A stretch of DNA of 64,000 nt from Candidatus Symbiopectobacterium endolongispinus (GTDB taxonomy: Bacteria; Pseudomonadota; Gammaproteobacteria; Enterobacterales; Enterobacteriaceae), in NCBI RefSeq assembly GCF_018777385.1, contig NZ_JAFJYB010000001.1, forward strand, positions 1,198,610-1,262,609. Reading direction: 5' to 3'. Below are positions 9,811-51,383 of the stretch, in pieces (the first letter of the stretch is position 1; every line of letters starts with the position of its first letter). The position numbers and the translations under genes were made by a program. The notes beneath the pieces were generated by a model, which had not been told where the DNA came from, searched no databases, and saw only the letters and a list, made by a program, of their open reading frames with translations.

Positions 9811-9822
9811 CTGTATGTAATT
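9811..9822 (+). promoter_or_regulatory. LexA half-site at left end of IS copy A
   Basis: CTGT at 9811-9814 followed by the 8 bp ATGTAATT and then the IS terminus. This is the left half of a CTGT-N8-ACAG SOS operator split by the insertion. The gene it once controlled is not identifiable here. Confidence 0.75.
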
Positions 9823-11137
9823 GGGTCTTCCCTTGTTGTGGTGGCTGAAGGCATGATAATGGCGTATTAAATCGCCAGAGGTCACCACCATGGACGAAAA
9901 GTCTCTCTACGCTCATATCCTCAACCTGTCTATTCCGTGGCAGGTAAAGTCTCTTTCTCTCGATGAAAATGCCGGTTCTGTTACCGTTACAGTTGAGATT
10001 GCGAAAAACACTCAGTTAACCTGTCCAACCTGCGGGAAATCTTGTCCTATTCACGATCACCGACATCGTAAATGGCGCCATCTCGATACCTGTCAGTTCG
10101 CGACAATAGTCGAAGCTGATGTACCCCGTATTATGTGCCCGGAGCATGGCTACCAGACGCTGTCTGTTCCATGGGCCGGCCCCGGTAGCCGGTATACGCT
10201 GTTGTTCGAGTCGTTCGTTATCTCATGGCTGAAAATCAGCACCGTGGATGCCGTCAGGAAACAGCTGAGGCTGAGCTGGAATGCTGTCGATAATATTATG
10301 CAACGGGCGGTTAAGCGTGGACTGGCCCGTCGAAAAACACCTCAGGCCGCACGTCATCTCTGTGTTGATGAGGTCGCTTTCAAAAAGGGGCATCAGTACG
10401 TCACCGTTATCTCTGATACCCAAGGACAGGCATTGGAACTCAAAGATGATCGCGGAGTTGAAAGTCTTGCTGGCTATCTCCGGAGTCTGGGTGACCGCCA
10501 GATTGAATCCATTAAAACCCTGTCGATGGACATGAATCTATCCTATATAAGCGCAGCGCGGCTCCATCTGCCTAACGCGGTGGAGAAGATCGCGTTCGAC
10601 CACTTCCATGTAGCGAAAATGCTCTGTGCCGTCGTAGATAAAACACGACAGTTGGAGATGAAAACCATCCCGTTACCGGCACGAAAAAGTGCACATCGTT
10701 CCCGTTATCTGTGGTTGTACGGTCGCCATAAACGTCATGGTCGAATAGCAGAAAGACTGGAAGCAGCGCAGATGGTTCTGCCTGATACCAGCCGTTGCTG
10801 GGCAATGAAGGCGCTGGCCCGGGAACTCTGGAACCGCCGGTATGACGAACACAGCAGGCGTCTGTGGCTGGAATGGATAGGGATGGCAAAAGACGTTGGT
10901 GTCCCGCTACTAAGCAGCGCCGCCCGGACGTTACGTAAACGACTGTACGGGATCCTGAATGCCATGAAACACAGGGTATCAAACGGTAATGCAGAGTCAC
11001 TAAACAGCAAGATAAGGCTGCTGCGGATCAAGTCCAGAGGATACCGGAACAAAGAACGCTTTAAGGTGGCAGTGATGTTCCATTACGGCAGGTTAAACAT
11101 GTTGTTATAAGTCTCCCACCATGATAGGGGAAGACCC
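9823..11137 (+). mobile_element. ISL3-family insertion sequence, copy A (1315 bp)
   Basis: Terminal inverted repeats start GGGTCTTCCC on the left and end GGGAAGACCC on the right. One long transposase gene fills the element. It is identical in length to copy C. The 8-bp sequences beside the two ends differ (ATGTAATT left, ATTTATGT right), so the two flanks are not a target duplication of one insertion and have probably been rejoined by recombination between IS copies. Confidence 0.95.
9890..11110 (+). CDS. ISL3-family transposase (copy A)
   Basis: 406-residue transposase with an N-terminal zinc-finger-like region (CPTCGKSCPIHDHRHRKWRH, later MCPEHG), a helix-turn-helix region, and the DDE-type catalytic domain: CVDEVAFKKGHQYVTVISD for the first Asp, SMDMNLSY for the second, and NGNAESLNSKIRLLR with the late Glu. 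Intact, so it may still be active and able to act on the defective copy B. Ends with a TAA 27 bp before the right terminus. Confidence 0.95.
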   Translation: MDEKSLYAHILNLSIPWQVKSLSLDENAGSVTVTVEIAKNTQLTCPTCGKSCPIHDHRHRKWRHLDTCQFATIVEADVPRIMCPEHGYQTLSVPWAGPGSRYTLLFESFVISWLKISTVDAVRKQLRLSWNAVDNIMQRAVKRGLARRKTPQAARHLCVDEVAFKKGHQYVTVISDTQGQALELKDDRGVESLAGYLRSLGDRQIESIKTLSMDMNLSYISAARLHLPNAVEKIAFDHFHVAKMLCAVVDKTRQLEMKTIPLPARKSAHRSRYLWLYGRHKRHGRIAERLEAAQMVLPDTSRCWAMKALARELWNRRYDEHSRRLWLEWIGMAKDVGVPLLSSAARTLRKRLYGILNAMKHRVSNGNAESLNSKIRLLRIKSRGYRNKERFKVAVMFHYGRLNMLL

Positions 11138-11149
11138 ATTTATGTACAG
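11138..11149 (+). promoter_or_regulatory. LexA half-site at right end of IS copy A
   Basis: The 8 bp ATTTATGT directly follow the IS end, then ACAG at 11146-11149. The half-site spacing is the same as at the other five IS ends. The next 250 bp up to 11400 hold no gene I can see. Confidence 0.75.
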
Positions 11150-11400
11150 CATTAAAGGCAAGGTGCTTTTGAGATAACCGTATTAATAATATGTAATTTG
11201 TGAGCGCACTCTGATTCTACCCATATCCTGATGTAAACGGCGGATATGGCCAAGTCATGGTTAAAACCTAAATAACAACAAAATAGCTTTCGTTTTTTGA
11301 TAGAAACTCATCATTTTCCTAAAGAACGAAATATTGCCTATGACATGATCGGCGCTTATTTTTAATTAACTGTCATACAAATAAAAATTTAGGTGGTCTC

Positions 11401-11799
11401 ATGCAATTATTTAAAACTATAGCGGTATTAACGATGGGGTTGTTATCAGGATGCGATGCGCAACAGGCGGAAGACAGTAACAAGAGCAACAATCATGTGC
11501 AGGCAGATAGTTCTGTACCGCTCATTATCGCGTTAAAAGACAGAGGGGAGGGCTTTCAGGAAATTCCTTCGACGTTACTTATTAAGCAGACGGTATCCGG
11601 TGATTCCGTTGAGTCTCCTGAGCGTGCAACCGTGACCATTGAGGAAGATATTCCCACTGACGATTCAGTGGCTGCAATGCGTTATGTCTATCAATTATCA
11701 AAGAGGGATGACTCCTGGGAAATAGACAGCAAAGATATCAGTCAGCGTTGTGTCAGCGGTCGGGGGAGTGCAGATTTTTCTAAGGAACTTTGCCGCTAG
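11401..11799 (+). CDS. Putative lipoprotein, unknown function
   Basis: 132 residues with a lipoprotein signal: MQLFKTIAVLTMGLLSGC, lipobox LLSGC, so Cys18 would be acylated. The mature part is acidic and Ser-rich at first, then contains a plausible small beta-rich domain (PLIIALKDRGEGF, TVTIEEDIPTDDSV, YVYQLSKRDDSWEIDSK). AGGTGG lies just before the ATG. I do not recognise the family. No operon partner is evident. Confidence 0.7.
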   Translation: MQLFKTIAVLTMGLLSGCDAQQAEDSNKSNNHVQADSSVPLIIALKDRGEGFQEIPSTLLIKQTVSGDSVESPERATVTIEEDIPTDDSVAAMRYVYQLSKRDDSWEIDSKDISQRCVSGRGSADFSKELCR

Positions 11800-11915
11800 C
11801 CTCATTCGGATAATTGCACTCGTTGAGCACGGTGACTGAATATCATGCTTAAAGAGGTTGGCATCGTGCCACCCGTGTTGTTTTCCAGGTGGCCCTATTT
11901 ACGCTGCTACTACAG

Positions 11916-13306: not shown

Positions 13307-13366
13307 CCCGCGTTGCTGATGCGTAAATCGGTGCCTGGCATAGTCCACTTTGGCGGCACACCGCTG

Positions 13367-15138: not shown

Positions 15139-15150
15139 TGTTGCCAGATA

Positions 15151-34740: not shown

Positions 34741-34752
34741 CTGGTTATGTAT
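34741..34752 (+). promoter_or_regulatory. LexA-like half-site at window-left end of IS copy B
   Basis: CTGG (34741-34744), then TTATGTAT, then the IS terminus. It is the only one of six flanking half-sites with a mismatch to CTGT. The variant resembles the CCAG half of the E. coli dinI box. Confidence 0.6.
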
Positions 34753-36065
34753 GGGTCTTCCCTATCATGGTGGGAGACTCATAACAACATGTTTAACCTG
34801 CCGTAATGGAACATCACTGCCACCTTAAAGCGTTCTTTGTTCCGGTATCCTCTGGACTTGATCCGCAGCAGCCTTATCTTTCTGTTTAGTGACTCTGCAT
34901 TACCGTTTGATACCCTGTGTTTCATGGCATTCAGGATCCCGTACAGTCGTTTACGTAACGTCCGGGCGGCGCTGCTTAGTAGCGGGACACCAACGTCTTT
35001 TGCCATCCCTATCCATTCCAGCCACAGACGCCTGCTGTGTTCGTCATACCGGCGGTTCCAGAGTTCCCGGGCCAGCGCCTTCATTGCCCAGCAACGGCTG
35101 GTATCAGGCAGAACCATCTGCGCTGCTTCCAGTCTTTCTGCTATTCGACCATGACGTTTATGGCGACCGTACAACCACAGATAACGGGAACGATGTGCAC
35201 TTTTTCGTGCCGGTAACGGGATGGTTTTCATCTCCAACTGTCGTGTTTTATCTACGACGGCACAGAGCATTTTCGCTACATGGAAGTGGTCGAACGCGAT
35301 CTTCTCCACCGCGTTAGGCAGATGGAGCCGCGCTGCGCTTATATAGGATAGATTCATGTCCATCGACAGGGTTTTAATGGATTCAATCTGGCGGTCACCC
35401 AGACTCCGGAGATAGCCAGCAAGACTTTCAACTCCGCGATCATCTTTGAGTTCCAATGCCTGTCCTTGGGTATCAGAGATAACGGTGACGTACTGATGCC
35501 CCTTTTTGAAAGCGACCTCATCAACACAGAGATGACGTGCGGCCTGAGGTGTTTTTCGACGGGCCAGTCCACGCTTAACCGCCCGTTGCATAATATTATC
35601 GACAGCATTCCAGCTCAGCCTCAGCTGTTTCCTGACGGCATCCACGGTGCTGATTTTCAGCCATGAGATAACGAACGACTCGAACAACAGCGTATACCGG
35701 CTACCGGGGCCGGCCCATGGAACAGACAGCGTCTGGTAGCCATGCTCCGGGCACATAATACGGGGTACATCAGCTTCGACTATTGTCGCGAACTGACAGG
35801 TATCGAGATGGCGCCATTTACGATGTCGGTGATCGTGAATAGGACAAGATTCCCGCAGGTTGGACAGGTTAACTGAGTGTTTTTCGCAATCTCAACTGTA
35901 ACGGTAACAGAACCGGCATTTTCATCGAGAGAAAGAGACTTTACCTGCCACGGAATAGACAGGTTGAGGATATGAGCGTAGAGAGACTTTTCGTCCATGG
36001 TGGTGACCTCTGGCGATTTAATACGCCATTATCATGCCTTCAGCCACCACAACAAGGGAAGACCC
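34753..36065 (-). mobile_element. ISL3-family insertion sequence, copy B (1313 bp, inverted)
   Basis: Same element as copies A and C but on the opposite strand, and two bases shorter: one base lost in the transposase gene and one G near its right terminus. The flanks belong to two different insertions, because the window-right 8 bp match the window-right flank of copy C and not the window-left flank of B. Confidence 0.95.
34779..35998 (-). pseudogene. ISL3-family transposase (copy B), frameshifted
   Basis: Near-identical to the 406-residue transposase of copies A and C, but one A is missing near 35852, in the zinc-finger region (CPTCG then NLVLF instead of KSCPIHDH). This separates the N-terminal 50 residues from the catalytic part. 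One Ser-to-Arg change is also seen in the last catalytic segment (ESLNRKIRLL). Defective on its own. Confidence 0.95.
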
Positions 36066-36077
36066 ATGTGTATACAG
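36066..36077 (+). promoter_or_regulatory. LexA half-site at window-right end of IS copy B (former sulA/sxy operator)
   Basis: ATGTGTAT directly after the IS, then ACAG (36074-36077). Read on the other strand this is CTGT-ATACACAT, the left half of the operator whose right half lies beside sulA at 51372-51383. Confidence 0.88.
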
Positions 36078-36270
36078 TATATCGGCTATAGATGAAAATC
36101 AACCTGCTTTTTTTGGAAGCGCTTCGCATAATTGGCATGGTAGTGGGCGTAGATCACATTTTGTGTTTGAAGTCTCACCAACCTTATGATTAATTACTTT
36201 AACATGTTAAGAACACATATACAGACAGAGGATTGATTTTCAATACTAAAGGGTGTTGTATGAATTAGTT

Positions 36271-36876: not shown

Positions 36877-36989
36877 GACGTCAACTTGCGCGGTATCTTC
36901 AAAGGTAATGATGCCGCGCTATATGTTTTTATGCTTCGCGTGTTCTCTGCACCATTTTGACCGTGTGTACTATCACCGGATAGTTTCTT

Positions 36990-39104: not shown

Positions 39105-39124
39105 CGTCTGTTCCTTACCGACGG

Positions 39125-39571: not shown

Positions 39572-39796
39572 TGTTGCTCCATGATGTCAGGCGTAGCGAA
39601 GGTCTCGTAAATAGGGCATCTATCATTACAAAATACAGACATCTCATGGCATTGCTTCGGCACACATCGCGTATGATGTCATCAGAAAGAATATTACATC
39701 AAGCGCGGGGATATCCTAACGTATTTTAACACTGGAGAAGGGGTCTGTGTCGCAGGTAAACTACCGAAAAGCCGTTTTTTTCATGGCGTAACGAAA

Positions 39797-41854
39797 ATGG
39801 AACTGAAAGCAACCTCTTTAGGCAAACATCTGGCGCAACACCCCTACAATCGGGTGAAGCTGCTCAATGCGGGCGTTCAGGTGAGCGGTGAGAAACACGA
39901 GTATGTCATTCCCTTTAACCAGTTGCTGGATATGCAATGCAAGCGTGGGCTGGTATGGGGGGAACTGGAGTTTGTGCTACCAGAAAACCAGGTGGTGCGG
40001 CTGCATGGCACCGAATGGCAGGAAACCCAGCAGTTCTACCGCTATCTGATGAAAATGTGGCGTCAGTGGAGTGACGACATGAGCGCAGTGTGTGCCGACG
40101 CGTTACAGCGCCAGGTCACCGATATTGAGCAAATGGCGAACCATCATGGGTGGATTTCACGTCAGGCGTTGACTGAGTTACAGGCAGATATTCGTGCAAC
40201 GCTCGCTTCCTTGCCGTTGCCTGTCGCAAGGCTGGCGGGGTTTGTGAATTGTTGTGACAGCTACACCCTTTGTCAGCAGTGGCTCGCTGAGGGGGAGTCG
40301 TGCAGAACCGTCTGTAACCAAACTTGGATGGAGAAAACGCTCTCCTCAGAGCAGGCGTTTTTTGACGGCGTTGAAACTACTCCGCTTAATGTTTCGCAGT
40401 GTCGCGCCGTCATCAATGGTGAAGATTCCGTATTAGTGCTGGCGGGGGCGGGCAGTGGAAAAACGTCCGTATTAGTGGCGCGCGCCGCCTGGTTGCTGCA
40501 CCGAAACGAAGCGATGCCGGAACAAATCTTGTTACTTGCCTTTGGCCGCAAAGCCGCGCAGGAGATGAATGAACGTATACAGGCGTGCTTACACACGGAC
40601 GCTGTACAGGCCAAAACATTCCATGCGCTGGCACTGCATATTATTCAGCATGCTACGCGCAAAGCGCCGGTTATCAGACGATTGGAAAGCAATGGCGCGC
40701 TACGACATGAACTGCTGATTAAAACCTGGCAGCAGCAGTGCGCGGAGAAGAAAGCGCAAGCCAAAGGATGGCGGGAGTGGCTGAGCGAGGAGATGGCGTG
40801 GGATGTGCCTGACGGCGAGTTCTGGCTGGATGCGCGTATGGCAGCGCGGCTGAGTGGTCGTTTGGATCGCTGGCTCGGGCTAATGCGTATGCAGGGCGGG
40901 AGCCAAAATGACATGCTGGCGCTGGCGGATGATGAGCAGCGCCCGCGATTGCAACGTGGTTTACGCTTGATGGCCCCTTTGCTTAAGGCATGGAAAGCAG
41001 CATTGAAAGAAGAAGGCGCGGTGGACTTCTCTGACCTGATCCTCCATCAGGCGGTAAATTTGCTGGATAAGGGGCGCTTTATCAGCCCTTGGAAGCATAT
41101 TCTGGTCGATGAATTTCAGGATATTTCTCCCCAGCGTGCGCAATTGTTGGCCGCGCTGCGCAGGCAAAATCTGCGTACCCGCCTTTTTGCTGTCGGTGAT
41201 GACTGGCAGGCGATTTACCGTTTCAGTGGCGCTGAACTGACGCTGACCAAGGCATTTGAGCATCACTTTGGGCGCGGAGAGCGCTGTGCGCTGGATACGA
41301 CCTATCGCTTTAACGATCGTATTGGCGAGATTGCCAATACCTTTGTGCAGCAGAATCCGCATCAGTTAAAGAAGCCTCTTAACAGCTTGCGCGCTGGCGA
41401 TAAAAAAGCGGTCATGCTGCTGCCTGAAACACAGTTGGAAACGTTGTTCGATAAGCTCAGCAGTTACGTCACGCCCGATGAGCGTATTCTTGTGCTGGCG
41501 CGTTATCACCATTTGCGGCCAGCCATGCTGGATAAAGCGGGTGTGAGATGGCCAAACCTGATTATTGAGTTTATGACAATCCATGCCAGCAAGGGGCAAC
41601 AGGCTGACTATGTGGTGATTGTGGGATTGAACGATGGCAAAGAAGGTTTCCCCGCCTTGCCGCGTGAAAGTTTGCTGGAGCAGGTCTTGTTACCCCAGCC
41701 GGAACCTTTTGCTGATGCGGAAGAGTGTCGTTTACTTTATGTGGCGCTAACCCGTGCGAAACACCGGGTCTGGTTGCTCTACGATCGTGACGCACCGTCT
41801 GTCTTTGTTGAACAATTACAGCGTATCGGTGTGCCGCTTCAGAGGAAACCTTAA
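39797..41854 (+). CDS. helD: DNA helicase IV
   Basis: 685 residues, UvrD/Rep superfamily 1 helicase. The Walker A motif is VLAGAGSGKTSVLVARAAWL, Walker B ILVDEFQDISPQR, motif III VGDDWQAIYRFSGAELTLT, and motifs V-VI TIHASKGQQADYVV and LLYVALTRAKHRVWLL. It translocates 3'-5' on single-stranded DNA. Intact and of normal length. In E. coli it lies between yccF and mgsA, as here. Confidence 0.96.
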   Translation: MELKATSLGKHLAQHPYNRVKLLNAGVQVSGEKHEYVIPFNQLLDMQCKRGLVWGELEFVLPENQVVRLHGTEWQETQQFYRYLMKMWRQWSDDMSAVCADALQRQVTDIEQMANHHGWISRQALTELQADIRATLASLPLPVARLAGFVNCCDSYTLCQQWLAEGESCRTVCNQTWMEKTLSSEQAFFDGVETTPLNVSQCRAVINGEDSVLVLAGAGSGKTSVLVARAAWLLHRNEAMPEQILLLAFGRKAAQEMNERIQACLHTDAVQAKTFHALALHIIQHATRKAPVIRRLESNGALRHELLIKTWQQQCAEKKAQAKGWREWLSEEMAWDVPDGEFWLDARMAARLSGRLDRWLGLMRMQGGSQNDMLALADDEQRPRLQRGLRLMAPLLKAWKAALKEEGAVDFSDLILHQAVNLLDKGRFISPWKHILVDEFQDISPQRAQLLAALRRQNLRTRLFAVGDDWQAIYRFSGAELTLTKAFEHHFGRGERCALDTTYRFNDRIGEIANTFVQQNPHQLKKPLNSLRAGDKKAVMLLPETQLETLFDKLSSYVTPDERILVLARYHHLRPAMLDKAGVRWPNLIIEFMTIHASKGQQADYVVIVGLNDGKEGFPALPRESLLEQVLLPQPEPFADAEECRLLYVALTRAKHRVWLLYDRDAPSVFVEQLQRIGVPLQRKP

Positions 41855-41895
41855 TAACAGCGCTGCCAGCAACCGGGTAGCGCTGATGCGCCGCG

Positions 41896-42267
41896 TTACT
41901 TCAGACGCTCATTCAGATAGCGTTGGTAGTCAGGAATGGCGATCTCAACGGGCTGTTTAAAAAGGGCTGAGTTAACCAAAAAGTCAGCGGTGGAACGGTT
42001 GGTTGCGACCGGAATATTCCAGACGGTAGCGAAGCAGAGCCTTGACGTCAGGATCGTGCGGAACCTCATTCAGTGGGTCCCAAAAGAAGATCATCAGATC
42101 GATTACAACATGATACCAAGGTGAAGAGCGCAGCGTATCGTGGGCATCCAGTTCCTCCCACGCCGGGCTTACCAGCGAGTATTCAGGATCGATTCAATCA
42201 CGACACCAGGGTATCCCAGCAGTTTATGACGAATCTGTTCTCCAATACCAAATTTACAGATAATCAT
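41896..42267 (-). pseudogene. Deletion chimera: hspQ start joined to mgsA end
   Basis: The 5' part (ATG 42267, ribosome site AGGAG) encodes HspQ, the heat-shock protein that binds hemimethylated oriC and aids Lon: [20 protein letters not shown], then after a one-base loss [20 protein letters not shown] and PWYHVVID. There it passes into the C-terminal half of methylglyoxal synthase: [20 protein letters not shown], ending [13 protein letters not shown]. Another small deletion lies near the [14 protein letters not shown] junction. In E. coli mgsA, yccT, yccU and hspQ are separate genes in this order, so the deletion removed the genes between them. Neither product is made. The shared ATCGAT at the joint suggests short-homology recombination. 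Confidence 0.87.
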
Positions 42268-42460
42268 AATGACTCCTGAGATAATCTGACTCTGTAACCT
42301 TACTTCTATATGGGCGCGAACGCCCAGATTTCAAGTTGTATGTGGAACAGCGTATTTGCTAACGGAATAAGGTTATTTTACTGCTAATAGTATGAGGCAT
42401 ATTGTATCGCCGTGCAGGAAATAAAGGTGTCTGCCCATTGATGATTGAGGTGGCGTTTAG

Positions 42461-42741
42461 ATGTCTGAACACTGTGTGACAGCCTATGTATACGGTGTGG
42501 TGCAGGGGGGGTTGGTTTTCGTTATCACACACAACAGCAGGCCCGACAGTTGGGCGTAAAAGGGTATGCCAGGAATTGCGAGGATGGCAGTGTGGAAGTG
42601 GTAGCCAGTGGTGAGCCGCAGCAGGTTGAACAACTTATCATTTGGCTAAAAGCGGGTGGGCCGCGCAGTGCTCGTGTTGAGCACGTTCTTGTCGAGCCTT
42701 GCGCGATGATGGATTACACGGGTTTTTCAATCCGCTATTAG
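42461..42741 (+). pseudogene. acyP: Acylphosphatase, broken in a G-run
   Basis: AcyP hydrolyses acyl phosphates. The frame starts [16 protein letters not shown] and continues, after a shift, as [20 protein letters not shown] with the catalytic Arg and Asn ([13 protein letters not shown]). The G-run at 42505-42511 has two extra bases compared with the expected QGVGFR. Removing them gives 93 codons, the family length. In its usual place beside tusE, although rlmI, which lies between hspQ and acyP in E. coli, is missing. Confidence 0.95.
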
Positions 42742-42748
42742 CCGAATA

Positions 42749-43078
42749 TCAGATACATTTTACCGGCTTAGGTAGTCCTGCAATTTTGGTTGCCTGTTTG
42801 GCGGGGCCTTTCGGAAAGAGCCGATACAGGTAGCGGCTATTACCTTTTTCTTCGCCGTACTTTTGTGCCATCGCTTTTACCAGCATGCGAATCGCCGGTG
42901 AGGTGTTGAACTCCAGATAGAAGTGGCGAACAAAGCGCACCACTTCCCAATGCGCATCCGTTAACGCGATATCTTCCTGCTTTGCCAGTAGCGGTGCGAG
43001 AGACTCACTCCAATCAGCGCTGTTAAGCAAGTATCCCTGTGCATCCGTTTCTATAAAACGCCCTTCAAACTCCAACAT
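42749..43078 (-). CDS. tusE: Sulfur relay protein TusE
   Basis: 109 residues of the DsrC/TusE family. It receives sulfur from TusBCD and passes it to MnmA for 2-thiouridine in tRNA. The conserved penultimate-type Cys lies in the terminal PVKCI, and the helical core reads [20 protein letters not shown]. Intact. It overlaps little with neighbours and keeps the E. coli arrangement acyP-tusE-yccA. Confidence 0.95.
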
Positions 43079-43160
43079 AGTGCCTCGTAACCCCCTGTTT
43101 TAAGCGAAGTGTAGCAAAGAAATTCAGTCGGAAGAATGGGGGGTTCAGGGGGAATAAAAA

Positions 43161-43192
43161 GGCCTGAGCGGCAGAGACGCCACACTCAGGCC
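43161..43192 (-). terminator. Terminator after yccA
   Basis: On the minus strand GGCCTGAG and CTCAGGCC pair around a GC-rich loop, followed by TTTTTATT (43153-43160). Confidence 0.8.
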
Positions 43193-43234
43193 CGTTACAT
43201 CAGTGCAATGATAAAGGCAGAAGCCTCAATCCGG

Positions 43235-43894
43235 TTAGTCGTTGCGCATGGTGCCTAAAATGCTCAACAAGCTCACGAACAGGTTATAAATGGAGACGTA
43301 CAGGCTAACCGTGGCGCGAATATAATTCGTTTCACCACCGTGAATGATGTTGCTGGTTTCCCAGAGAATGGCGCCGGCAGAAAACAGAATGAACAAGCCA
43401 CTCAACGCAAGATGTAACGCCGGAAGTTGCAGGAACAGATTGGCAATCACCCCGACGATCAGAACAACAAATCCCGCCATCATCATCCCGGACAGGAATG
43501 ACATATCCTTGCGCGTTGTTAGAACATAGGCAGAACAGCAGAAAAAGACCAGGGCCGTGCCGCCCAATGCAAGCATGATAATGTCAGAGGCGCCGGAGGC
43601 AATCAGTGAGCTCAGAATCGGGCCCAACGTGTACCCCATAAAACCCGTGAGCGCAAATGCTGCCAGAATACCTGCTGGACTGTTGGCGAGTTTGTGGGTC
43701 AAAAACATCAGTCCGTAAAACCCTATCAGCATCAACAATAAGCCAGGCGCGGGAAGGTTTAGCACGGTACTGACGGTTGCGGTAAGCGCGGAAAAACCCA
43801 GAGTAAGTGATAAAAGGAAATACGTGTTACGCAGCACCTTGTGCGTGCTGAGCAGTGAGCTTTCCTGTCTGGAAGAGACAACAATACGATCCAT
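43235..43894 (-). CDS. yccA: YccA, BAX inhibitor-1 family membrane protein
   Basis: 219 residues with seven membrane helices. It is a substrate and modulator of the FtsH protease, and overproduced or stabilised forms protect cells with jammed SecY. It begins [20 protein letters not shown], the conserved cytosolic tail, and includes GFTGYTLGP-like [19 protein letters not shown]. Intact. It is next to serT as in E. coli. Confidence 0.95.
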
Positions 43895-44123
43895 GGCAGC
43901 GACTCTCTCTGTTAAATGATTATTATGACTCAGGATATCAGCATAGATAGTTGCATAGGGTTATTAAAGACGTTTTACCCTTCTTTACGCTGTGAAGTGC
44001 TAATTTTATAAGCATTATGATGATATTACGTCCAGTTAACGCTAAATTAGGTTATTTTTAGCGCAGTTGAGCGTTATCAGGCTTTACAACCTGTCGGGCT
44101 GTGTTTATAGTTCGCTTCGTTGT

Positions 44124-44211
44124 GGAGGGGTGGCCGAGTGGTTTAAGGCAGCGGTCTTGAAAACCGCCGAGTGTAACAGCTCCGTGAGTTCGAATCTCAC
44201 CTCCTCCGCCA
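44124..44211 (+). tRNA. serT: tRNA-Ser(TGA)
   Basis: 88 nt with an encoded CCA end. The anticodon is TGA (CT-TGA-AA loop). Acceptor GGAGGGG pairs with CTCCTCC, the D arm reads GGCCGAG, a long class II variable arm follows, and the T loop is GTTCGAATC. It is the chromosomal attachment site used by the island that follows. Confidence 0.97.
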
Positions 44212-44213
44212 CT
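44157..44213 (+). other. Attachment site (left), 3' part of serT
   Basis: The last 57 nt of the serT region (anticodon loop to ACT beyond the CCA) are repeated at 49434-49490 with 50 of 57 identical positions. This is the classical pattern of a tRNA-targeting integrase. Confidence 0.8.
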
Positions 44214-44399
44214 TTTTTTTCAAATGCTTATCTGTAGTTCCTCACATTGTTTTTCTCTATTGTTATCCACTTGGTATATCCTATTTTTTCTGTGTGTTAT
44301 TGTTCATTTTTATTGATTAGCGGCAAATCAAGCGTCGTCTAGTTTGTATTTTTCTACCGTAGTATTGCTACGGCTGCTACAAATATAGATTTAGATCTA

Positions 44400-44931
44400 A
44401 AAGATAACCCCCCCCTTATCACCCAAAAGAAACCAGCTCAAAAATTCGAACCACTTGAGGCTGAACTGCCTGAATCGATATCGCCTGATCTGTTGCGTGA
44501 GTGGGTTGAGTTTTGCCAACAGCTTAAGCAACCTATCAGGACCGAGCATGGGTTGGTCAGAACGCTCCAAAAACTCGACGACTTGCGTATGGCCGGGCTG
44601 TTTGAGCACCGGGGTGAAAAGCATGCAGGAAAAACTGACGCAGCAGAATCGCAAACCGCCAGAGACATTCGGACAGCACGCGCAGCCTGGGAACGGCACG
44701 TATAAGGTCTGTGGTGAGTTTATGGTACTGACCGTGGAGAGCGGGGCAAACCCGTTTGGGGTGAACGTAGCTGACGTACTTGTGGAATATAAGCGCTGGC
44801 GCAACGAGTTATAGCGTTACTCGATCAGTGCTGAATTTCCGTGGCGCCAGCCGGTGCTGCATCACATTTGCATCGGGAATACCTGCGTCGTAAGGCTGCA
44901 CGGCTGATTTAGCCAACCAATCGAGTTATGA
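44400..44931 (+). pseudogene. Phage replication-protein remnants
   Basis: Debris of what look like phage replication genes. One stretch (PLEAELPESISPDLLREWVE, FCQQLKQPIRTEHGLVRTLQ) resembles the C-terminal region of phage O/DnaT-like initiators. A second (GEFMVLTVESGANPFGVNVA, EYKRWRNEL, in-frame stop, then SAEFPWRQPVLHHICIG) resembles phage P-type helicase loaders. Several frame changes and a stop interrupt both. Family assignment is by feel, not by a hard motif, so take it as phage-like rather than exact. Confidence 0.5.
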
Positions 44932-45044
44932 CCAATGACCAATTTGTTAAACACAACCAAATGGATAATCGAGCCTATTCCATGGTCGACGCGAGGGGAT
45001 TAAACCGGTAAGCCTGACGTTTTGAGAATGAAAAAACCTTAACG

Positions 45045-45075
45045 AAAAAGCAGCCTTGGTTTCAGACTGCTTTTT
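45045..45075 (-). terminator. Terminator after the metallo-beta-lactamase-fold gene
   Basis: On the minus strand AAAAAGCAGTC pairs with GGCTGCTTTTT (one mismatch) around a 9-nt loop, ending in a T-run. Confidence 0.8.
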
Positions 45076-45110
45076 ACTTTAATTTGAAAATCAGGTTTTA
45101 ACGAGAGGGT

Positions 45111-46052
45111 TTATTTCCATCCCATTTCGCCTTTGGCGACTTTAGCACTTAGTTCGAGAGAACTTTCTCCCCCCAAACCAGGATAGTGTTTTTTCATAGC
45201 CTTGATCAGTTCTTCTGAGTTTTTAGCCTTTGCGGTTTCTTCATCAAACACACGAATGTAGTTTGCAGTAAAATCAACCGCTGTAACGCCCTCAGGAATT
45301 TTCCCTGTGAAATGCCCTGGGATTACCTTGGTTGGAGAGAGTGATTTAATCTTTTCAAGGGTTGTTAGCCAGTCTGCGTGCGATTTTGCTGTCTGGGTAT
45401 CAGCCATCCAGACATGTTCTCCTGATACGACAGGGATCCAGCCTGAAACCGTTTTGATTGACGGTATCCACACAAAAGTTCGGTCAGGGGTAGGGCCATC
45501 GAGACCTACAACTTGCAGTTCATGCCCCTCAAGTTGGAGCGAATTGCCTTGGAGAGGCTGAGGTACAATAATTTTACCCGGTGCGTTTGAGCCTAACTGT
45601 GGCCCCCACACTTTAAGTTTCTCGTCTTTAGTTTCCTGAATATGTGCGATGGTTTGTGGTGTGGCAACGATTTTTGTCTGCGGGAAAGCCGCCTGAAGAG
45701 TATCAAGGCCAAAGTAGAAATCTGGATCTCCATGGCTGATATAAATTGTCGTCAGGTGCTTCTGGGATGCCTTGATTTTGTCCACCAACTTACGGGCCTG
45801 CTCTGCTGAAAACTGAGCGTCAATCAAGATAGCATCATTTTTTCCTTCAACTACAGAGGATATGGCAAAAATAGCCTGCTCCCCGGGATTAAAAACAGAG
45901 GTAGTGATAGCTCGATGTTCCTGTTTGTTGGCGGAAGCCGATGAAGTTTATGTTCCTGTCGATTTAGATACGGCTGCATGACTCTGGAACCCTACCATCG
46001 CGGTCGCCAGAGCGAAGGCACATGCTGGGAGTGTATATTTCGATAACGTCAT
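45111..46052 (-). pseudogene. Exported metallo-beta-lactamase-fold hydrolase, one nonsense codon
   Basis: 314 codons in one frame. The N-terminus is a signal peptide (MTLSKYTLPACAFALATAMV). A TAA at 45948-45950 interrupts just after it (SKSTGT-TSSASANKQEH), in the linker before the catalytic domain. The MBL fold follows: NDAILIDAQFSAEQA, then TIYISHGDPDFYFGL where the usual HxHxDH is HGDPDFYFG, and a later KVIPGHFTGKIPEG. The first metal motif is the atypical HGDPD seen in a group of uncharacterised secreted MBL proteins. It may be island cargo. Without the stop it would look functional. Confidence 0.87.
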
Positions 46053-46314
46053 ATCAATTCACCTTTTTCAGTGTAGGGAAATTATTGAAAAATTGCTATC
46101 AGGTCATATGATTCAGCTATCAATGATTCTTTTTCAAGGCCATCAAAATTGATGTAGTAGGTCTGTCCACCGTCAGAGGCGCTTTAGTTGCGTGCATTAT
46201 CAATCACTTTTCGCTTTAGACGTGATATGGCTGTATATGAGGCAGCACAACAATAATATTGGGAAGAAGTATAAGCGCTTACTTTTTAGGTTAGATCATA
46301 TTTGTAGGCTTTGC

Positions 46315-46659
46315 TTAATGTTGGCTTTCTAAATGTCGCTGTATGTCTCTTGATAAACGCTGTTGCTGTTCCAAATCATGAGCCCAAAATTTATTATCAG
46401 GAAAATTATTATCACTGCTAAGGATATTACCTCCGCGCTTCATCCTTATTCGTGACAGCGCGTAACACCGCTCTTGATCGATGCCCGAGCCCCGTTTGTT
46501 TATCTCTTCGGTTATACGGAGCACTGTGTGTCCATGGCTATTGTATGTGCCTAGTGCTTTACACAAATCGTCATTGTTGTACGCAGATATTTGCTGGCTG
46601 GATAGGCTTGTGGCAGCGCACCCGGATAAAGTCAGTGTTATTGCTAAGGCTAATTTCAT
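46315..46659 (-). CDS. Small putative lipoprotein
   Basis: 114 residues from MKLALAITLTLSGCAATSLS, with a lipobox LSGC. The mature part includes NNDDLCKALGTYNSHGHTVL and ERCYALSRIRMKRGG, two further Cys that could pair. I do not recognise the family, though similar short lipoproteins occur in prophages and islands. GGAGCG lies before the ATG. Intact. Confidence 0.65.
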   Translation of the reverse strand: MKLALAITLTLSGCAATSLSSQQISAYNNDDLCKALGTYNSHGHTVLRITEEINKRGSGIDQERCYALSRIRMKRGGNILSSDNNFPDNKFWAHDLEQQQRLSRDIQRHLESQH

Positions 46660-46679
46660 GAGCGCTCCTTGTGGCAAGA

Positions 46680-47194
46680 GCCTTGGGCAAATGCAACGAA
46701 TTGGATTGATGTGACTGATATGGCCATGGTGAGTTCTTCTACCGTTATCTTGTTCATGTATTCAAATGGTATCTGGATGTCTGTTTTCACAACAGAAACA
46801 AAGGGTAAACCAACTGTTTTTAGTCAATTACTCGTCATGAGCTATGACATTAATGAGTATATCTTAGCAACTTTGACGAAAGGGAGAACATCATACAGGG
46901 CATTTTCAGCGGCACTGGTACTCAGGTCAAACCAGTGTTGTCGGCAGTGGATACATGGGGAATGAGAGACTGAGAAAAAGGCCTGCGCCTGCGTTGGGAT
47001 AAGGGGGACGCTGAAAGCGGGAGCTAAACGATGTCGTCCCATGGAACCCGTAGATCCATACGATCGAAAAAACGGGATTTACAGGAAGAATAATGAGAAA
47101 TAGCTGGGATCATGAAAAGGTCATTACAAATAAAGAGTTATATTCTCACAAATGAGGATTAAATTGCATCTTCCTTAATCAACTTATTGATTTT
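46680..47194. other. Island DNA without a recognisable gene
   Basis: Short ORFs only. One plus-strand stretch (ENIIQGIFSGTGTQVKPVLS) looks like a phage structural or regulatory fragment, but I cannot name it. No RNA gene or repeat is evident. Confidence 0.35.
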
Positions 47195-47228
47195 AAGCCC
47201 AGCGCTGTACTACAGCGCTGGGTTTTTA
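47195..47228 (+). terminator. Strong hairpin terminator inside the island
   Basis: CCCAGCGCTGT and ACAGCGCTGGG form a perfect 11-bp stem around ACT, followed by TTTTT. No intact gene precedes it on the plus strand; it is probably left over from a lost gene. Confidence 0.75.
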
Positions 47229-47307
47229 AGGAAAACAATCAAAAATACAATGTCCATTGTCATAATCCGTAATAAAATAGATTAATAATTAAACTGTTAG
47301 GTTGATA

Positions 47308-47556
47308 CTATTCTCGATAAGACTTAGGCGTTGAAATAACGAGAAGAACTTGTTTGAATGCTTCATTAATAATAGGATGATTTTCAGGTGTTTTCCCCTT
47401 TTGTTCCTCCGCCACTAATTTGAGGACTTCAAATACGTGACCTTTAGGAGATAAGGCATTAATAGTTCTCATTATCATTATTAATAGCAAGCTATTAGTG
47501 ACTTTTTGTACCTCAAGTGCGTGTTTTAAGTTTTTAATTTCATTCTCAACGTCCAT
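47308..47556 (-). CDS. Hypothetical protein
   Basis: 82 residues, MDVENEIKNLKHALEVQKVT with a helical N-terminus, then LLLIMIMRTINALSPKG and a Lys/Glu-rich end. AT-rich codon use fits island DNA. Not recognised. Coding looks likely but unproven. Confidence 0.5.
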   Translation of the reverse strand: MDVENEIKNLKHALEVQKVTNSLLLIMIMRTINALSPKGHVFEVLKLVAEEQKGKTPENHPIINEAFKQVLLVISTPKSYRE

Positions 47557-47749
47557 CTATTTCCTCAATCCGAAGGTCATCAGCCACTCCTTCGGGGTAA
47601 GCGCTTGTGCAAAAAAAAATAGCTCAAGCGGGCTGATATGTTTCCTGTGGTGTTTAACGTTTTTATTTTTACGTTAGTAGCTCAACTGAAGTCCGTACAA
47701 ATTGATATGCCCATTTTGTGCGGGCTTTCTCATTTATGGAGCATACAGG

Positions 47750-48285
47750 ATAATTAATGGTCGAAAAGGTGGCAGTGGCAATGCCCGGATGGCAGCTGAG
47801 TCGCCGGATTCCTACGCAAAAATCCTGTTGGCGCTGGGTGAGGGAGCGTTTAGTGGCGGGCTTGATGGCACGCGTGTTTTCATGGACGGTACACCGATCA
47901 CTGATGCCAATAGTAACGCTAACTTTTCGGGAGTGGCGTGGGAGTTTCGTTCTGGTACGCCCAATCAATCCTCTATTCCCGGTTTCCCTGGCGTTAGAGC
48001 ATGGAATCGCCGTCAGCACAGAATTAACGAGCCAGACAGACTGAGTGTATTATGACCATCCAGATCAGCGATCGCTTTGGCAGCCGTATCAAGGCTGAAA
48101 ACCTCTCTGTTTCGAAGTGGGCGCTGTACCAGATTGCGCAGCATTGCGACCAGTTGATTCCTGACGGCCGCGGTGGCGACAGCTCGGAGCCACGTTTTTT
48201 GTGCGATGTGTATATCCAGTCGCAGGAAGAAGCCTTGACCGTGTTAAACGATTTGGCCGCAATTGGCACTTTATCTGAATTCTAG
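47750..48285 (+). pseudogene. Lambda-like tail tip protein J, two fragments
   Basis: The first fragment (KGGSGNARMAAESPDSYAKI, then LLALGEGAFSGGLDGTRVFM and NFSGVAWEFRSGTPNQSSIP) corresponds to the N-terminal region of phage tail tip attachment protein J. The second (48052-48285: RFGSRIKAENLSVSKWALYQ, ARYCDQL-like IAQHCDQLIPDGRGG, EPRFLCDVYIQSQEEALTVL) matches a region much further on in J. The two are joined by an internal deletion with a frame change near 48035. J is over 1000 residues, so most of it is gone. Clear evidence of a lambdoid or similar siphophage origin for the island. Confidence 0.83.
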
Positions 48286-48332
48286 CATTATGCTTGATAG
48301 GAGGTTAACGCGTTGAATGATCGAGCGTAAAC

Positions 48333-48991
48333 TCAAACAAATACTGTGCTCATATTATGGGAGAAATAAGAAACCATTCTTGGTATTTTAGGATTTAAGG
48401 CGCTTCCTGACATTATCATGAAAAGTGCAAGCAAGTCACCATAGAGTGCTGAGCTATGATGAAGAATAAAGGGTTCACCTAGGATGCTTTTAAACTGACG
48501 CATAGTATCAATGAAAGCCGTGTATGGCTTTTCATTCCCTGAAGCTCCAGAGCGATTGTTCAGTGAAGCGCTAACCTCATCAATTATTTCATGTAAGTTG
48601 ACTAAGCCTTTAATGTAGTTGTCTCGGTCATGGGTTGTACAGTTATCCGCTAAAGTCCCATAAACATCTTTTGTATGCTTATTATGTATGACAAACGTTT
48701 TTCTCTTAACTCACTAAAATTATTGATAATTTCACTCAGCATATCTTTCATTCTTCCTTGTGATGCACCTCGCTCTTCTCCGCTATTTGCATGCTTCAAT
48801 TTAGATAATATTTCAGAAATATCCCTTCTTTGGGGATCATTCTGATCTGGCTTGTGATATGCATTTAATTCGGTAACGTAAGAGTTGGTGATCCCTTTGT
48901 TGTATATTGCTGCTTCAGGATTTCTTGATATATCTTCACGCATTGCACGCATAAATGAGCTTTCATTAGTCGTTGAACTGATTCTGTCCAT
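48333..48991 (-). pseudogene. Unrecognised AT-rich gene, one frameshift
   Basis: The first part (MDRISSTTNESSFMRAMRED, then KLKHANSGEERGASQGRMKD) and the second part (HTKDVYGTLADNCTTHDRDN, then YIKGLVNLHEIIDEVSASLN and a C-terminal helix LYGDLLALFMIMSGS) are one gene broken by loss of one A in an A-run near 48706. Adding it gives 220 codons. The composition (Ser, Asn, Thr-rich N-terminus, low GC) resembles horizontally acquired secreted or effector-like proteins, but nothing in it names a function. Confidence 0.65.
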
Positions 48992-49433
48992 TAAATTATC
49001 CTTAATTTAAGGGGGGTTTATATAAACGGTAGTTATAGTGTACGGTATTTAGTGATTGTTACGGTAACTTATTTTTAATTACTAACTGCCTTCCTTAATA
49101 TCATGTCAGAAAAAAATAATAATAATAAATATCAAAAAAACATTATGTGAGCAAGCAGATACCAGAAAGTGAGGAATCCACTCCGACGGTAATGTACCGT
49201 AATGTTTACTGCAACACAGTAGTAAACTAAGTGAAAAGTCCGCGCGGGTCGACTATAAGGTTGGGCGTATCTTCAGGTATAAAAACGCTTTTATACCATG
49301 ATTTATGACAATGAAGCGTTGGTATTTGAAGAAATCAGACCTTATAACTGGTTGATATATATTGGTTGTAGATGCTTCACTATACCAACGAATGATGTTA
49401 ATTGATTGATTTAAATGGGGTGTCGTGGTGTTA

Positions 49434-49490
49434 TTGAAAAGCGTCGAGTGTAACAGTTGCGTGAATTCGAATCTCATCACCTCCGCCACT
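49434..49490 (+). other. Attachment site (right), partial serT copy
   Basis: 57-nt copy of the serT 3' part (see 44157-44213) with seven substitutions. The seven differences show that the integration is old or that the phage-borne tRNA end was divergent. No integrase gene remains between the two sites. Confidence 0.8.
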
Positions 49491-49553
49491 CATTTAATAC
49501 AATCGATGCGCTATGAATATGTCTTCGACTTTATCCTAATTATATGCAGCATC

Positions 49554-49578
49554 AAAGTCCCTTAACAGGGGCTTTTTT
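49554..49578 (+). terminator. Hairpin terminator, probably the original serT terminator
   Basis: AAGTCCC pairs with GGGGCTT around TTAACA, followed by TTTTTT. It lies just beyond the right attachment site, where the terminator of serT would end up after integration into the tRNA 3' end. Confidence 0.6.
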
Positions 49579-49647
49579 GTTTGTACTTTATCTGCTTTTA
49601 ATCATTACCTACTCTGATTATCCATTTATCTGACCAGATCGCGGTGT

Positions 49648-50013
49648 CTAATGATTTGAGTTTACTACGGCTGTTCCGTCTATCATGCACAGGCAGTTTT
49701 CGTTGATAAGATCAGTAAATACCGTCATCCGTGCTGGATAGTGTCTTGCAGTGAAAAATTCGCGAAAAATATCCCGGACCGCAGGGAAATCGTGTCGATG
49801 TTTTAGGTAAAGCGTCAGTTGAACCATATCATCCAGGCTTGCATCGACCGACTGAAGTGTTTTTTGCAAAGCTTTCAGGGATGTCCTTGTCTGAAACACC
49901 GCATCCGCTTTCTCGTGACCGCCACTGTGGTGCGCCAGGAAAATAAAACCTCCTGCCACCACGCATGCCGGGCAGGTATCATCTTTCGTATGGGATGCTG
50001 CTCTTAAAATCAT
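49648..50013 (-). CDS. RidA (YjgF) family protein
   Basis: 121 residues from MILRAASHTKDDTCPACVVA. The RidA fold is clear: DAVFQTRTSLKALQKTLQSV, DDMVQLTLYLKHRHDFPAVR, and the C-terminal YPARMTVFTDLINENCLCMI. The active-site Arg used by imine deaminases (in the R-x-C/T motif) appears as PARMTVFTDL rather than the usual RxCVEV, so deaminase function is not assured. The frame is also open upstream into IS copy C, which would add 25 residues starting inside the IS. Intact. Confidence 0.82.
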   Translation of the reverse strand: MILRAASHTKDDTCPACVVAGGFIFLAHHSGGHEKADAVFQTRTSLKALQKTLQSVDASLDDMVQLTLYLKHRHDFPAVRDIFREFFTARHYPARMTVFTDLINENCLCMIDGTAVVNSNH

Positions 50014-50044
50014 CACGCTGTCCTCATGATTAATCGTGTTAATA

Positions 50045-50056
50045 CTGTATTTATTT
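50045..50056 (+). promoter_or_regulatory. LexA half-site at window-left end of IS copy C
   Basis: CTGT at 50045-50048 preceded by AATA (TACTGT-like), then ATTTATTT, then the IS. It lies upstream of the RidA gene on the minus strand. Confidence 0.78.
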
Positions 50057-51371
50057 GGGTCTTCCCTTGTTGTGGTGGCTGAAGGCATGATAATGGCGTA
50101 TTAAATCGCCAGAGGTCACCACCATGGACGAAAAGTCTCTCTACGCTCATATCCTCAACCTGTCTATTCCGTGGCAGGTAAAGTCTCTTTCTCTCGATGA
50201 AAATGCCGGTTCTGTTACCGTTACAGTTGAGATTGCGAAAAACACTCAGTTAACCTGTCCAACCTGCGGGAAATCTTGTCCTATTCACGATCACCGACAT
50301 CGTAAATGGCGCCATCTCGATACCTGTCAGTTCGCGACAATAGTCGAAGCTGATGTACCCCGTATTATGTGCCCGGAGCATGGCTACCAGACGCTGTCTG
50401 TTCCATGGGCCGGCCCCGGTAGCCGGTATACGCTGTTGTTCGAGTCGTTCGTTATCTCATGGCTGAAAATCAGCACCGTGGATGCCGTCAGGAAACAGCT
50501 GAGGCTGAGCTGGAATGCTGTCGATAATATTATGCAACGGGCGGTTAAGCGTGGACTGGCCCGTCGAAAAACACCTCAGGCCGCACGTCATCTCTGTGTT
50601 GATGAGGTCGCTTTCAAAAAGGGGCATCAGTACGTCACCGTTATCTCTGATACCCAAGGACAGGCATTGGAACTCAAAGATGATCGCGGAGTTGAAAGTC
50701 TTGCTGGCTATCTCCGGAGTCTGGGTGACCGCCAGATTGAATCCATTAAAACCCTGTCGATGGACATGAATCTATCCTATATAAGCGCAGCGCGGCTCCA
50801 TCTGCCTAACGCGGTGGAGAAGATCGCGTTCGACCACTTCCATGTAGCGAAAATGCTCTGTGCCGTCGTAGATAAAACACGACAGTTGGAGATGAAAACC
50901 ATCCCGTTACCGGCACGAAAAAGTGCACATCGTTCCCGTTATCTGTGGTTGTACGGTCGCCATAAACGTCATGGTCGAATAGCAGAAAGACTGGAAGCAG
51001 CGCAGATGGTTCTGCCTGATACCAGCCGTTGCTGGGCAATGAAGGCGCTGGCCCGGGAACTCTGGAACCGCCGGTATGACGAACACAGCAGGCGTCTGTG
51101 GCTGGAATGGATAGGGATGGCAAAAGACGTTGGTGTCCCGCTACTAAGCAGCGCCGCCCGGACGTTACGTAAACGACTGTACGGGATCCTGAATGCCATG
51201 AAACACAGGGTATCAAACGGTAATGCAGAGTCACTAAACAGCAAGATAAGGCTGCTGCGGATCAAGTCCAGAGGATACCGGAACAAAGAACGCTTTAAGG
51301 TGGCAGTGATGTTCCATTACGGCAGGTTAAACATGGGGTTATGAGTCTCCCACCATGATAGGGGAAGACCC
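50057..51371 (+). mobile_element. ISL3-family insertion sequence, copy C (1315 bp)
   Basis: Same length and ends as copy A. The right flank ATACACAT-ACAG is the sulA side of a split SOS operator. The left flank belongs to a different insertion, in agreement with an inversion between copies B and C. Confidence 0.96.
50124..51344 (+). CDS. ISL3-family transposase (copy C)
   Basis: 406 residues, the same as copy A except at the penultimate position (LNMGL instead of LNMLL). Zinc-finger region, helix-turn-helix and DDE catalytic segments are all intact. Confidence 0.95.
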   Translation: MDEKSLYAHILNLSIPWQVKSLSLDENAGSVTVTVEIAKNTQLTCPTCGKSCPIHDHRHRKWRHLDTCQFATIVEADVPRIMCPEHGYQTLSVPWAGPGSRYTLLFESFVISWLKISTVDAVRKQLRLSWNAVDNIMQRAVKRGLARRKTPQAARHLCVDEVAFKKGHQYVTVISDTQGQALELKDDRGVESLAGYLRSLGDRQIESIKTLSMDMNLSYISAARLHLPNAVEKIAFDHFHVAKMLCAVVDKTRQLEMKTIPLPARKSAHRSRYLWLYGRHKRHGRIAERLEAAQMVLPDTSRCWAMKALARELWNRRYDEHSRRLWLEWIGMAKDVGVPLLSSAARTLRKRLYGILNAMKHRVSNGNAESLNSKIRLLRIKSRGYRNKERFKVAVMFHYGRLNMGL

Positions 51372-51383
51372 ATACACATACAG
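51372..51383 (+). promoter_or_regulatory. LexA half-site beside sulA
   Basis: ATACACAT then ACAG (51380-51383), followed by TAACACTAAGG and the sulA ATG 12 bp on. It corresponds to the right half of the E. coli sulA operator (CATACAGTAACT). The other half-site is now at 36066-36077. Confidence 0.9.

What the first reader, a model, noticed from the sequence alone, without database searches (positions are those of the whole stretch)
9811..51383. All three ISL3-type IS copies sit inside LexA (SOS) operators
Each of the six IS ends is exactly 8 bp from a half-site: CTGT-ATGTAATT and ATTTATGT-ACAG (copy A), CTGG-TTATGTAT and ATGTGTAT-ACAG (copy B), CTGT-ATTTATTT and ATACACAT-ACAG (copy C). The 8 bp differ while the tetranucleotides are fixed, so the conservation is not part of the IS. 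CTGT-N8-ACAG is the core of the enterobacterial LexA box. Five perfect matches in six fixed positions cannot reasonably be chance. The element appears to home to SOS operators, either by transposase recognition of the palindrome or through LexA bound to it. ISL3 elements are known for 8-bp duplications; I know of no established LexA-box targeting in that family.
Basis: partly seen in the sequence, partly recalled or inferred. Interest (0 to 1): 0.95.

Follow-up and report, generated by a model that had tools for sequence, protein, structure and literature searches.

The report
Jumping gene targets SOS operators
A group of bacterial jumping genes is found preferentially at one exact spot inside the DNA switches of the SOS response to DNA damage, in chromosomes, plasmids and phages, likely because its transposase itself recognises the sequence that those switches share.

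Summary
Confirmed and extended. All three ISL3 copies in the window carry half LexA boxes exactly 8 bp from each end (5 of 6 arms perfect). Genome-wide, 29 of 46 ends of 23 full copies have CAG at that offset (at most 2 at any of 44 other offsets). The 8-mers of one copy often differ because copies have recombined; reunited, they give LexA boxes at cho, uvrB, sulA, uvrA-ssb, umuD and ydjM, and half a box remains at recA. Three same-genus genomes have uninterrupted LexA boxes there (7 loci, 21 of 21). A genome of another genus (79% element) has copies beside lexA, sulA, uvrD, recA, recN, dinB, cho and umuD. The named relative ISKox3 sits in E. coli dinD, sbmC and tisB boxes. One ISL3 clade does this; its sister clade does not. 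Of 39 distinct sites with exact 8-bp repeats, 39 keep TG-N10-CA, including nine scoring below 21 recalled LexA boxes; six further two-ended rows do not keep it. This favours direct reading by the transposase over recruitment by LexA, which is not excluded. Ten literature searches found umuD-ISKox3 listed as neighbours but no LexA-box targeting.

The parts
9811..9822 (.). Left half LexA box of copy A: CTGT + 8-mer (half of the cho operator)
   Evidence: 8-mer pairs with L013L (cho side); reunited box LexA score 22.9
9823..11137 (+). ISL3 element copy A, ends GGGTCTTCCC/GGGAAGACCC
9890..11110 (+). Transposase, 406 aa (Pfam DDE_Tnp_ISL3, HTH_Tnp_ISL3, Zn_ribbon_ISL3)
11138..11149 (.). Right half LexA box of copy A: 8-mer + ACAG (no partner found)
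34741..34752 (.). Half LexA box of copy B, CTGG + 8-mer (no partner found)
34753..36065 (-). ISL3 element copy B, 1313 bp, transposase reading frame broken
36066..36077 (.). Half LexA box on the side of a tfoX/sxy-like gene (named by eye; no NCBIfam hit)
50045..50056 (.). Left half LexA box of copy C, CTGT + 8-mer (no partner found)
50057..51371 (+). ISL3 element copy C
50124..51344 (+). Transposase of copy C (open frame)
51372..51383 (.). Half LexA box on the sulA side
   Evidence: reunited with 36066-36077 gives TACTGTATGTGTATACAGTA, score 25.9, the same box (other strand) as upstream of sulA in sister genome G167
51374..51913 (+). sulA frame (Met candidate at 51407), SOS division inhibitor next to copy C
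   Evidence: TIGR00623, E 1.9e-63, above cut-off

Best explanation
One clade of ISL3-family insertion sequences, to which the three copies in this window belong, is found inside LexA (SOS) operators with its 8-bp target duplication exactly on the 8-bp spacer of the operator, most likely because the transposase dimer itself reads the TGT...ACA arms of the palindrome. Shown by the sequences: the register, the SOS genes next to the copies, the uninterrupted boxes in sister genomes, the grouping of targeting elements in one clade, and the TG-N10-CA core also at sites that are poor LexA boxes. Inferred: the two strand transfers fall just inside the two arms, each arm contacted by one subunit; the older ISL3 taste for AT-rich 8-mers plus this acquired arm recognition would make LexA boxes the best sites available. 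Residues R101 and Y102 at the start of the helix-turn-helix region are candidate contacts (untested). Each insertion puts more than 1.2 kb between the half-sites and so is predicted to abolish LexA binding there. LexA boxes occur in hosts, conjugative plasmids and temperate phages, so this would be a widely shared landing site that mostly spares coding sequence.
For:: CAG at the fixed offset at 29 of 46 own ends, at most 2 elsewhere; control 0 of 20; 10 own sites with matching 8-mers, 6 at named SOS genes scoring 15.0-25.9, against 13.0-27.5 for 21 recalled E. coli boxes; uninterrupted boxes at seven loci in three sister genomes, 21 of 21; genome G026 (another genus) beside lexA, sulA, uvrD, recA, recN, dinB, cho, umuD; exact repeats at lexA, sulA and uvrD. 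E. coli ISKox3-type and ISEc53 copies at tisB, dinD and sbmC with exact repeats; dinD and sbmC hit in both orientations, sbmC by two different elements. Shewanella plasmid umuD-like gene, dinB, integron integrase. Enterobacter phage record (unverified, unannotated), CTGT-ATATATAT-ACAG; 17 elements labelled targeters on one side of a branch (95/95), 8 non-targeters on the other. For direct reading: TG...CA at 39 of 39 exact-repeat sites, while the outer TA bases typical of LexA boxes average 0.89 of 4 at the nine low-scoring sites and 2.70 of 4 at the other 30; the first C of the arm varies (9 of 78); targeters and sister elements have similar length with no extra domain; only R101, Y102, G167 and M359 are fixed in 14 of 14 targeters and absent from the sister rows (4, at M359 3).
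Against: No transposition or binding was measured. 3 of 23 own copies have no CAG arm; two of these (L018, L023) lie in coding sequence between 9-bp repeats. 17 of 46 own ends lack CAG; deletion or rearrangement beside the element is only an inference. TG...CA is lost at six two-ended rows dropped from the 39 (L018, L023, L172, L173, L201, and L196, where one base is missing). LexA scores rest on 21 boxes written from memory; of the nine low-scoring sites two lie just under the limit (12.8, 12.9) and one of these is at uvrD. The own genome has 68 intact CTGT-N8-ACAG sites (reversed-pattern control 43), 41 of the 50 listed with core scores below 14, while at least eight SOS operators are hit; pure arm reading does not predict this unless insertions in genes were purged, and LexA recruitment would fit it. 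Boxes at lexA, recN and ftsK are still empty. No full inventory of the host's SOS operators was made.
Confidence: 0.62

Rival explanations
1. LexA-guided insertion: the transposase recognises LexA bound to its operator and inserts into the DNA under it.
For: Sites concentrate on SOS operators: 19 of 39 at genes known to me as LexA-regulated, 30 of 39 score at least as high as the lowest of 21 recalled boxes. In the own genome 41 of the 50 listed empty palindromes have low LexA core scores. PMC3108266 (passages) describes the beta/gamma-proteobacterial LexA motif; that the clade's hosts here use it is my inference.
Against: Strand transfer falls exactly inside the dimer's own footprint, where bound LexA would be in the way; tethered systems that I recall insert beside the tether. 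Seven exact-repeat sites score only 0.8-8.8 and yet keep TG...CA.
Confidence: 0.28
2. Selection, not targeting: insertions are random but survive mainly in SOS operators because losing LexA control is useful or harmless.
For: The host genome holds many copies and is rearranged between them; insertions in regulatory DNA may be mild.
Against: Selection does not fix the register to the base: 39 of 39 exact-repeat sites have TG and CA around the 8-bp repeat; the same boxes are hit by different elements and in both orientations; the sister element shows no such pattern.
Confidence: 0.03
3. The transposase recognises a generic AT-rich palindrome or promoter-like DNA, with LexA boxes only as common examples.
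For: ISL3 relatives that do not target operators also duplicate mostly AT-rich 8-mers; the seven sites scoring below 9 are not at recognised SOS genes.
Against: The arms are sequence-specific; 32 of 39 sites have CTG and CAG on both sides.
Confidence: 0.07

Closest known systems
ISKox3, ISCfr12, ISEc53 (ISL3 family, Enterobacteriaceae)
   Same: Same clade (ISKox3 71% protein identity; tree), same type of ends, same 8-bp duplication, LexA-box sites as shown here.
   Different: Already named; the target rule was not found in ten literature searches. A paper on an IncX3 plasmid lists umuD-ISKox3 only as a neighbourhood (PMC10466682, passages).
Other ISL3 elements (G419, G1180, G1205 and others)
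   Same: Same transposase family and 8-bp duplications.
   Different: No CTGT/ACAG arms: 0 of 20 ends in G419; exact repeats aggaaact and aaaacttt in G1180 and G1205 without arms.
Tn7 and attTn7; IS elements aimed at REP palindromes (recalled)
   Same: Sequence-directed insertion into a conserved, widespread and tolerable site.
   Different: Here the site is the operator of a global stress repressor, present many times per genome, and the insertion splits it.
ISCR elements with SOS-promoted transposase (PMC13393415; listing and start of abstract only)
   Same: A link between an insertion sequence and SOS.
   Different: There SOS promotes transposase expression; here the LexA box is the target, and no LexA-like box was found inside the own element or ISKox3 (best scores 2.6 and 1.6).
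ISCth4 transposase (PDB 6xg8; IS256 family, recalled) as nearest fold
   Same: Foldseek E 2.6e-7 to the AlphaFold model.
   Different: 13% identity, TM-scores 0.44 and 0.45; no PDB relative by sequence.

Membership tests
ISL3 family of insertion sequences | DDE_Tnp_ISL3 transposase with ISL3 zinc ribbon and HTH | tested here: met
   PF01610 E 9.3e-54, PF13542, PF14690, each above its cut-off
ISL3 family of insertion sequences | Terminal inverted repeats and 8-bp target duplication | tested here: met
   GGGTCTTCCC/GGGAAGACCC; exact 8-bp repeats in relatives and in two own copies (L012, L016), reunited across other own copies; two own copies (L018, L023) have 9-bp repeats
LexA operator (beta/gamma-proteobacterial SOS box) | CTGT-N8-ACAG palindrome at the promoter of DNA-damage genes | tested here: met
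   that these genes are LexA-regulated is recalled
LexA operator (beta/gamma-proteobacterial SOS box) | Binding by LexA and SOS induction | not testable with these tools
   needs DNA-binding and expression assays
Operator-targeting ISL3 clade (proposed) | Single clade, sister clade not targeting | tested here: met
   17 labelled targeters on one side of a branch, 95/95, 96% of 200 bootstrap trees; three labels (L031, L034, L136) rest on one or imperfect ends, and the tree warns of long outgroup branches
LexA-guided (tethered) transposition | Requires LexA protein | not testable with these tools
   indirect evidence only
Direct sequence readout by the transposase | Arms conserved even where the LexA box is poor | tested here: met
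   TG...CA at 9 of 9 exact-repeat sites scoring below 13.0; not met at the dropped rows L018, L023, L172, L173, L196, L201

The most novel reading that the evidence does not exclude
A transposase lineage has evolved the DNA specificity of a host stress repressor: by reading the LexA palindrome directly it turns the SOS regulon into a ready-made set of landing sites shared by chromosomes, plasmids, integrons and phages, and where it multiplies it takes SOS genes out of LexA control, operator by operator, and makes those operators the breakpoints of genome rearrangement.
Probability: 0.55. Interest if true: 0.92.

Novelty: new variant of a known kind. Interest (0 to 1): 0.87.

Why it matters
Target-specific insertion sequences are known, but the operator of a global regulator as the preferred target of an IS clade was not found described in the papers searched. 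It explains repeated neighbourhoods such as umuD-ISKox3 on IncX3 plasmids. It predicts which promoters such elements will split: recA, lexA, sulA, uvrA, uvrB, umuD, dinB, dinD, sbmC, tisB and integron integrases. It also offers a natural system, with a non-targeting sister clade of similar length, for studying how a transposase acquires sequence specificity.

Tried and rejected
The unequal 8-mers at one copy first looked like an argument against transposition into these sites; pairing them across copies resolved this for many ends, not all. Some 8-mers have several possible partners (L004R fits L003R, L008R, L011L and L020R); the sulA-sxy pair was chosen by gene neighbourhood and by the sister genome box. 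Pairing the recA half with the sulA half (last row) is therefore not counted: in G167 recA and sulA have mirror-image spacers. A LexA box inside the element, to explain the half-sites, was not found. In one search the far end chosen for L090, L091 and L094 (longer than 1712 bp) was a wrong IS-end match, as searches suggest; these are not in the 39. No solved relative was found by sequence. Literature searches: 10 of 10 used, open-licence PMC papers only.

Rows dropped before the count of 39: L018, L023 (9-bp repeats, no arms), L172, L173, L201 (no exact 8-bp repeat, arms not conserved), L196 (intI site, one base short), L031 and L136 (ends do not match, or only one found), L177, repeated insertions in the same box (counted once), and own or G026 copies without an exact or reunited 8-bp repeat. 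Eight of the ten own sites are reunited from two copies. L050 is called umuD by eye only (no NCBIfam hit).
Full report
Observation. The three copies lie at 9823-11137 (+), 34753-36065 (-) and 50057-51371 (+). Their six outer ends read CTGT/ACAG, CTGG/ACAG and CTGT/ACAG exactly 8 bp out. The element encodes a 406-aa ISL3 transposase with zinc ribbon, HTH and DDE domains. The window lies in an unnamed 4.49-Mb genome with 26 matches to the element, 23 of them full length.

Statistics. Over the 46 ends of the 23 full copies, ACAG stands at offset 8 in 19 and CAG in 29; at any of 44 other offsets the maxima are 1 and 2. Nine copies have CAG at both ends, 11 at one, 3 at none. The two 8-mers are identical in only two of the 23 copies (L012 at umuD, L016 at ydjM; L018 and L023 have 9-bp repeats), but many other ends have an exact complementary partner at another copy, as expected if copies recombined after insertion. 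In the window, the right flank of copy B (tfoX/sxy-like gene, named by eye) and the right flank of copy C (sulA) reunite to TACTGTATGTGTATACAGTA; the same box, other strand, stands upstream of sulA in sister genome G167. So at least one exchange, most simply inversion of the stretch between B and C, has split this operator.

Genes. NCBIfam places RecA, SulA, UvrB, UvrA, Ssb, UmuD, Cho, YdjM (metal-dependent hydrolase PRK11648) and Tag next to own copies (the UvrA frame is cut by the locus end and stays below the whole-protein cut-off). A dinI-like frame with an internal stop is read by eye. Reunited or intact boxes: cho 22.9, uvrB 24.2, sulA 25.9, uvrA-ssb 19.8, ydjM 20.9, umuD 15.0, on a matrix from 21 recalled E. 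coli boxes (13.0 to 27.5). One reunited site in coding sequence scores 2.2.

Empty sites. In three genomes of the same genus (G167, G022, G251; aligned segments 79-98% identical) the seven loci recA, sulA, uvrB, umuD, ssb (uvrA-ssb), cho and ydjM hold an uninterrupted LexA box. The best-scoring 20-mer was sought within about 80 bases; in 19 of 21 cases it lay exactly at the expected position, in two it was 3 or 6 bases off; scores 13.4 to 26.3. An eighth locus, dinI, was found in one genome (26.7). For E. coli, the joined empty dinD junction matches over at least 80% of the query in 4385 of 5426 genomes and the sbmC junction in 5090 (the five rows listed each are 100% identical, the others were not read).

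Other lineages. G026, of another genus of the same family, carries a 79%-identical element of 1712 bp. Of 22 loci fetched, 17 rows with two candidate ends were printed. NCBIfam matches LexA, SulA, UvrD, RecA, RecN, DNA polymerase IV, Cho, UmuD and UvrB beside them (SulA, UvrD, Cho and UvrB below the whole-protein cut-off, mostly cut or shortened frames); lexA, sulA-sxy and uvrD have exact repeats. Three G026 sites with exact repeats are not at recognised SOS genes (L080, L083, L085/L086). In E. coli, ISKox3-type copies sit at tisB, dinD (four strains, two orientations) and sbmC (two strains, two orientations), ISEc53 also at sbmC and in a region that I read as prophage (flanks). Of 18 loci read from the plasmid and E. 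coli collections (L177 left out), 14 show CTGT-N8-ACAG with exact repeats; Salinivibrio L168 has one arm changed; L136 shows only its right arm; L172 and L173 fail. Further members sit beside umuD-like genes on K. pneumoniae, IncX3 and Shewanella plasmids, at dinB in G939 and at integron integrases in G669 and G692 (G669 by eye from its similarity to G692, and one base short), and in an unverified phage record at CTGT-ATATATAT-ACAG. ISKox3-like DNA has a match in 1703 of 5426 complete E. coli genomes, 1272 over at least 80% of its length.

Clade. In a 29-row tree the 17 elements labelled targeters fall on one side of a branch supported 95/95 and the 8 with readable, non-matching targets on the other; 4 rows are unlabelled. 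Three labels (L031, L034, L136) rest on one or imperfect ends, and the program warns of long outgroup branches. The sister element in G419 has exact 8-bp duplications in the 10 copies counted (nine distinct sites) and 0 of 20 ends with CAG or ACAG. G1180 and G1205 likewise lack arms.

Mechanism. Of 39 distinct sites with exact 8-bp duplication, TG and CA are present in 39, CTG/CAG on both sides in 32, CTGT/ACAG in 25; 19 are at genes known to me as LexA-regulated and 30 score at or above 13.0. The nine sites below 13.0 (seven at 0.8-8.8, two at 12.8-12.9, one of these at uvrD) keep TG...CA but not the outer TA bases (0.89 of 4, against 2.70 of 4). Six two-ended rows left out (L018, L023, L172, L173, L196, L201) do not keep TG...CA in register. 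What is kept is thus the inner part of the arms, not LexA-box quality as a whole. With the coaxial register this favours direct reading by the transposase. It is an inference: recruitment by LexA would also favour good boxes, and the genome still has 68 perfect CTGT-N8-ACAG sites untouched (reversed-pattern control 43; 50 of 68 listed and scored, median core score 9.2), as well as intact boxes at lexA, recN and ftsK. The AlphaFold model (mean pLDDT 86.4) puts R101 and Y102, two of only four positions fixed in 14 targeters and different in the sister rows, at the start of the helix 101-116.

Consequence. At six junctions of three own copies the best remaining LexA score is -1.4 to -6.7, against about 15-26 for the reunited boxes at SOS genes, so loss of LexA control is predicted for hit genes. 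Whether the genes become constitutive or silent was not tested.

Literature. Ten searches and passages of PMC12102499, PMC3108266 and PMC10466682 gave no description of LexA-box targeting by an insertion sequence. Only open-licence PMC papers are held, so absence there is not proof of novelty.

Noticed in passing
window 34753-36065: Copy B is 2 bp shorter and its transposase frame is broken, while copies A and C are open.
   Followed up: partly
window 36066-51383: The sxy-like and sulA halves of one operator lie at copies B and C, which face opposite ways: the stretch between them was probably inverted by recombination between the copies.
   Followed up: partly
window 36253-36873: The sxy/tfoX-like gene next to copy B (named by eye) appears split over two frames.
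   Followed up: no
L002 (dinI side of the element): The dinI-like frame has an internal stop, perhaps decay of the SOS regulon in this genome.
   Followed up: no
L181, L179, L237: The lexA, recN and ftsK boxes of the host are still intact although at least eight other SOS operators are hit.
   Followed up: partly
L174:964-1482: ISEc53 (1885 bp) carries a passenger gene annotated ClbS/DfsB family between its ends; the G026 element is also longer (1712 bp).
   Followed up: no
L139, L144: In G419 two copies of the non-targeting sister element stand in tandem 5 bp apart, as expected from a circle or dimer intermediate.
   Followed up: no
L242 (Escherichia phage SaltyDalty): A 186-bp element remnant, with a half LexA box outside it (CTGT-TTATCCAT), overlaps the start of a gene annotated UmuD-like.
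   Followed up: partly
L178 (IncX3-type plasmid): ISKox3 splits CTGT-ATGCATAT-ACAG near a gene annotated S24 family peptidase (umuD-like), which would explain the umuD-ISKox3 neighbourhood listed in papers on such plasmids.
   Followed up: partly
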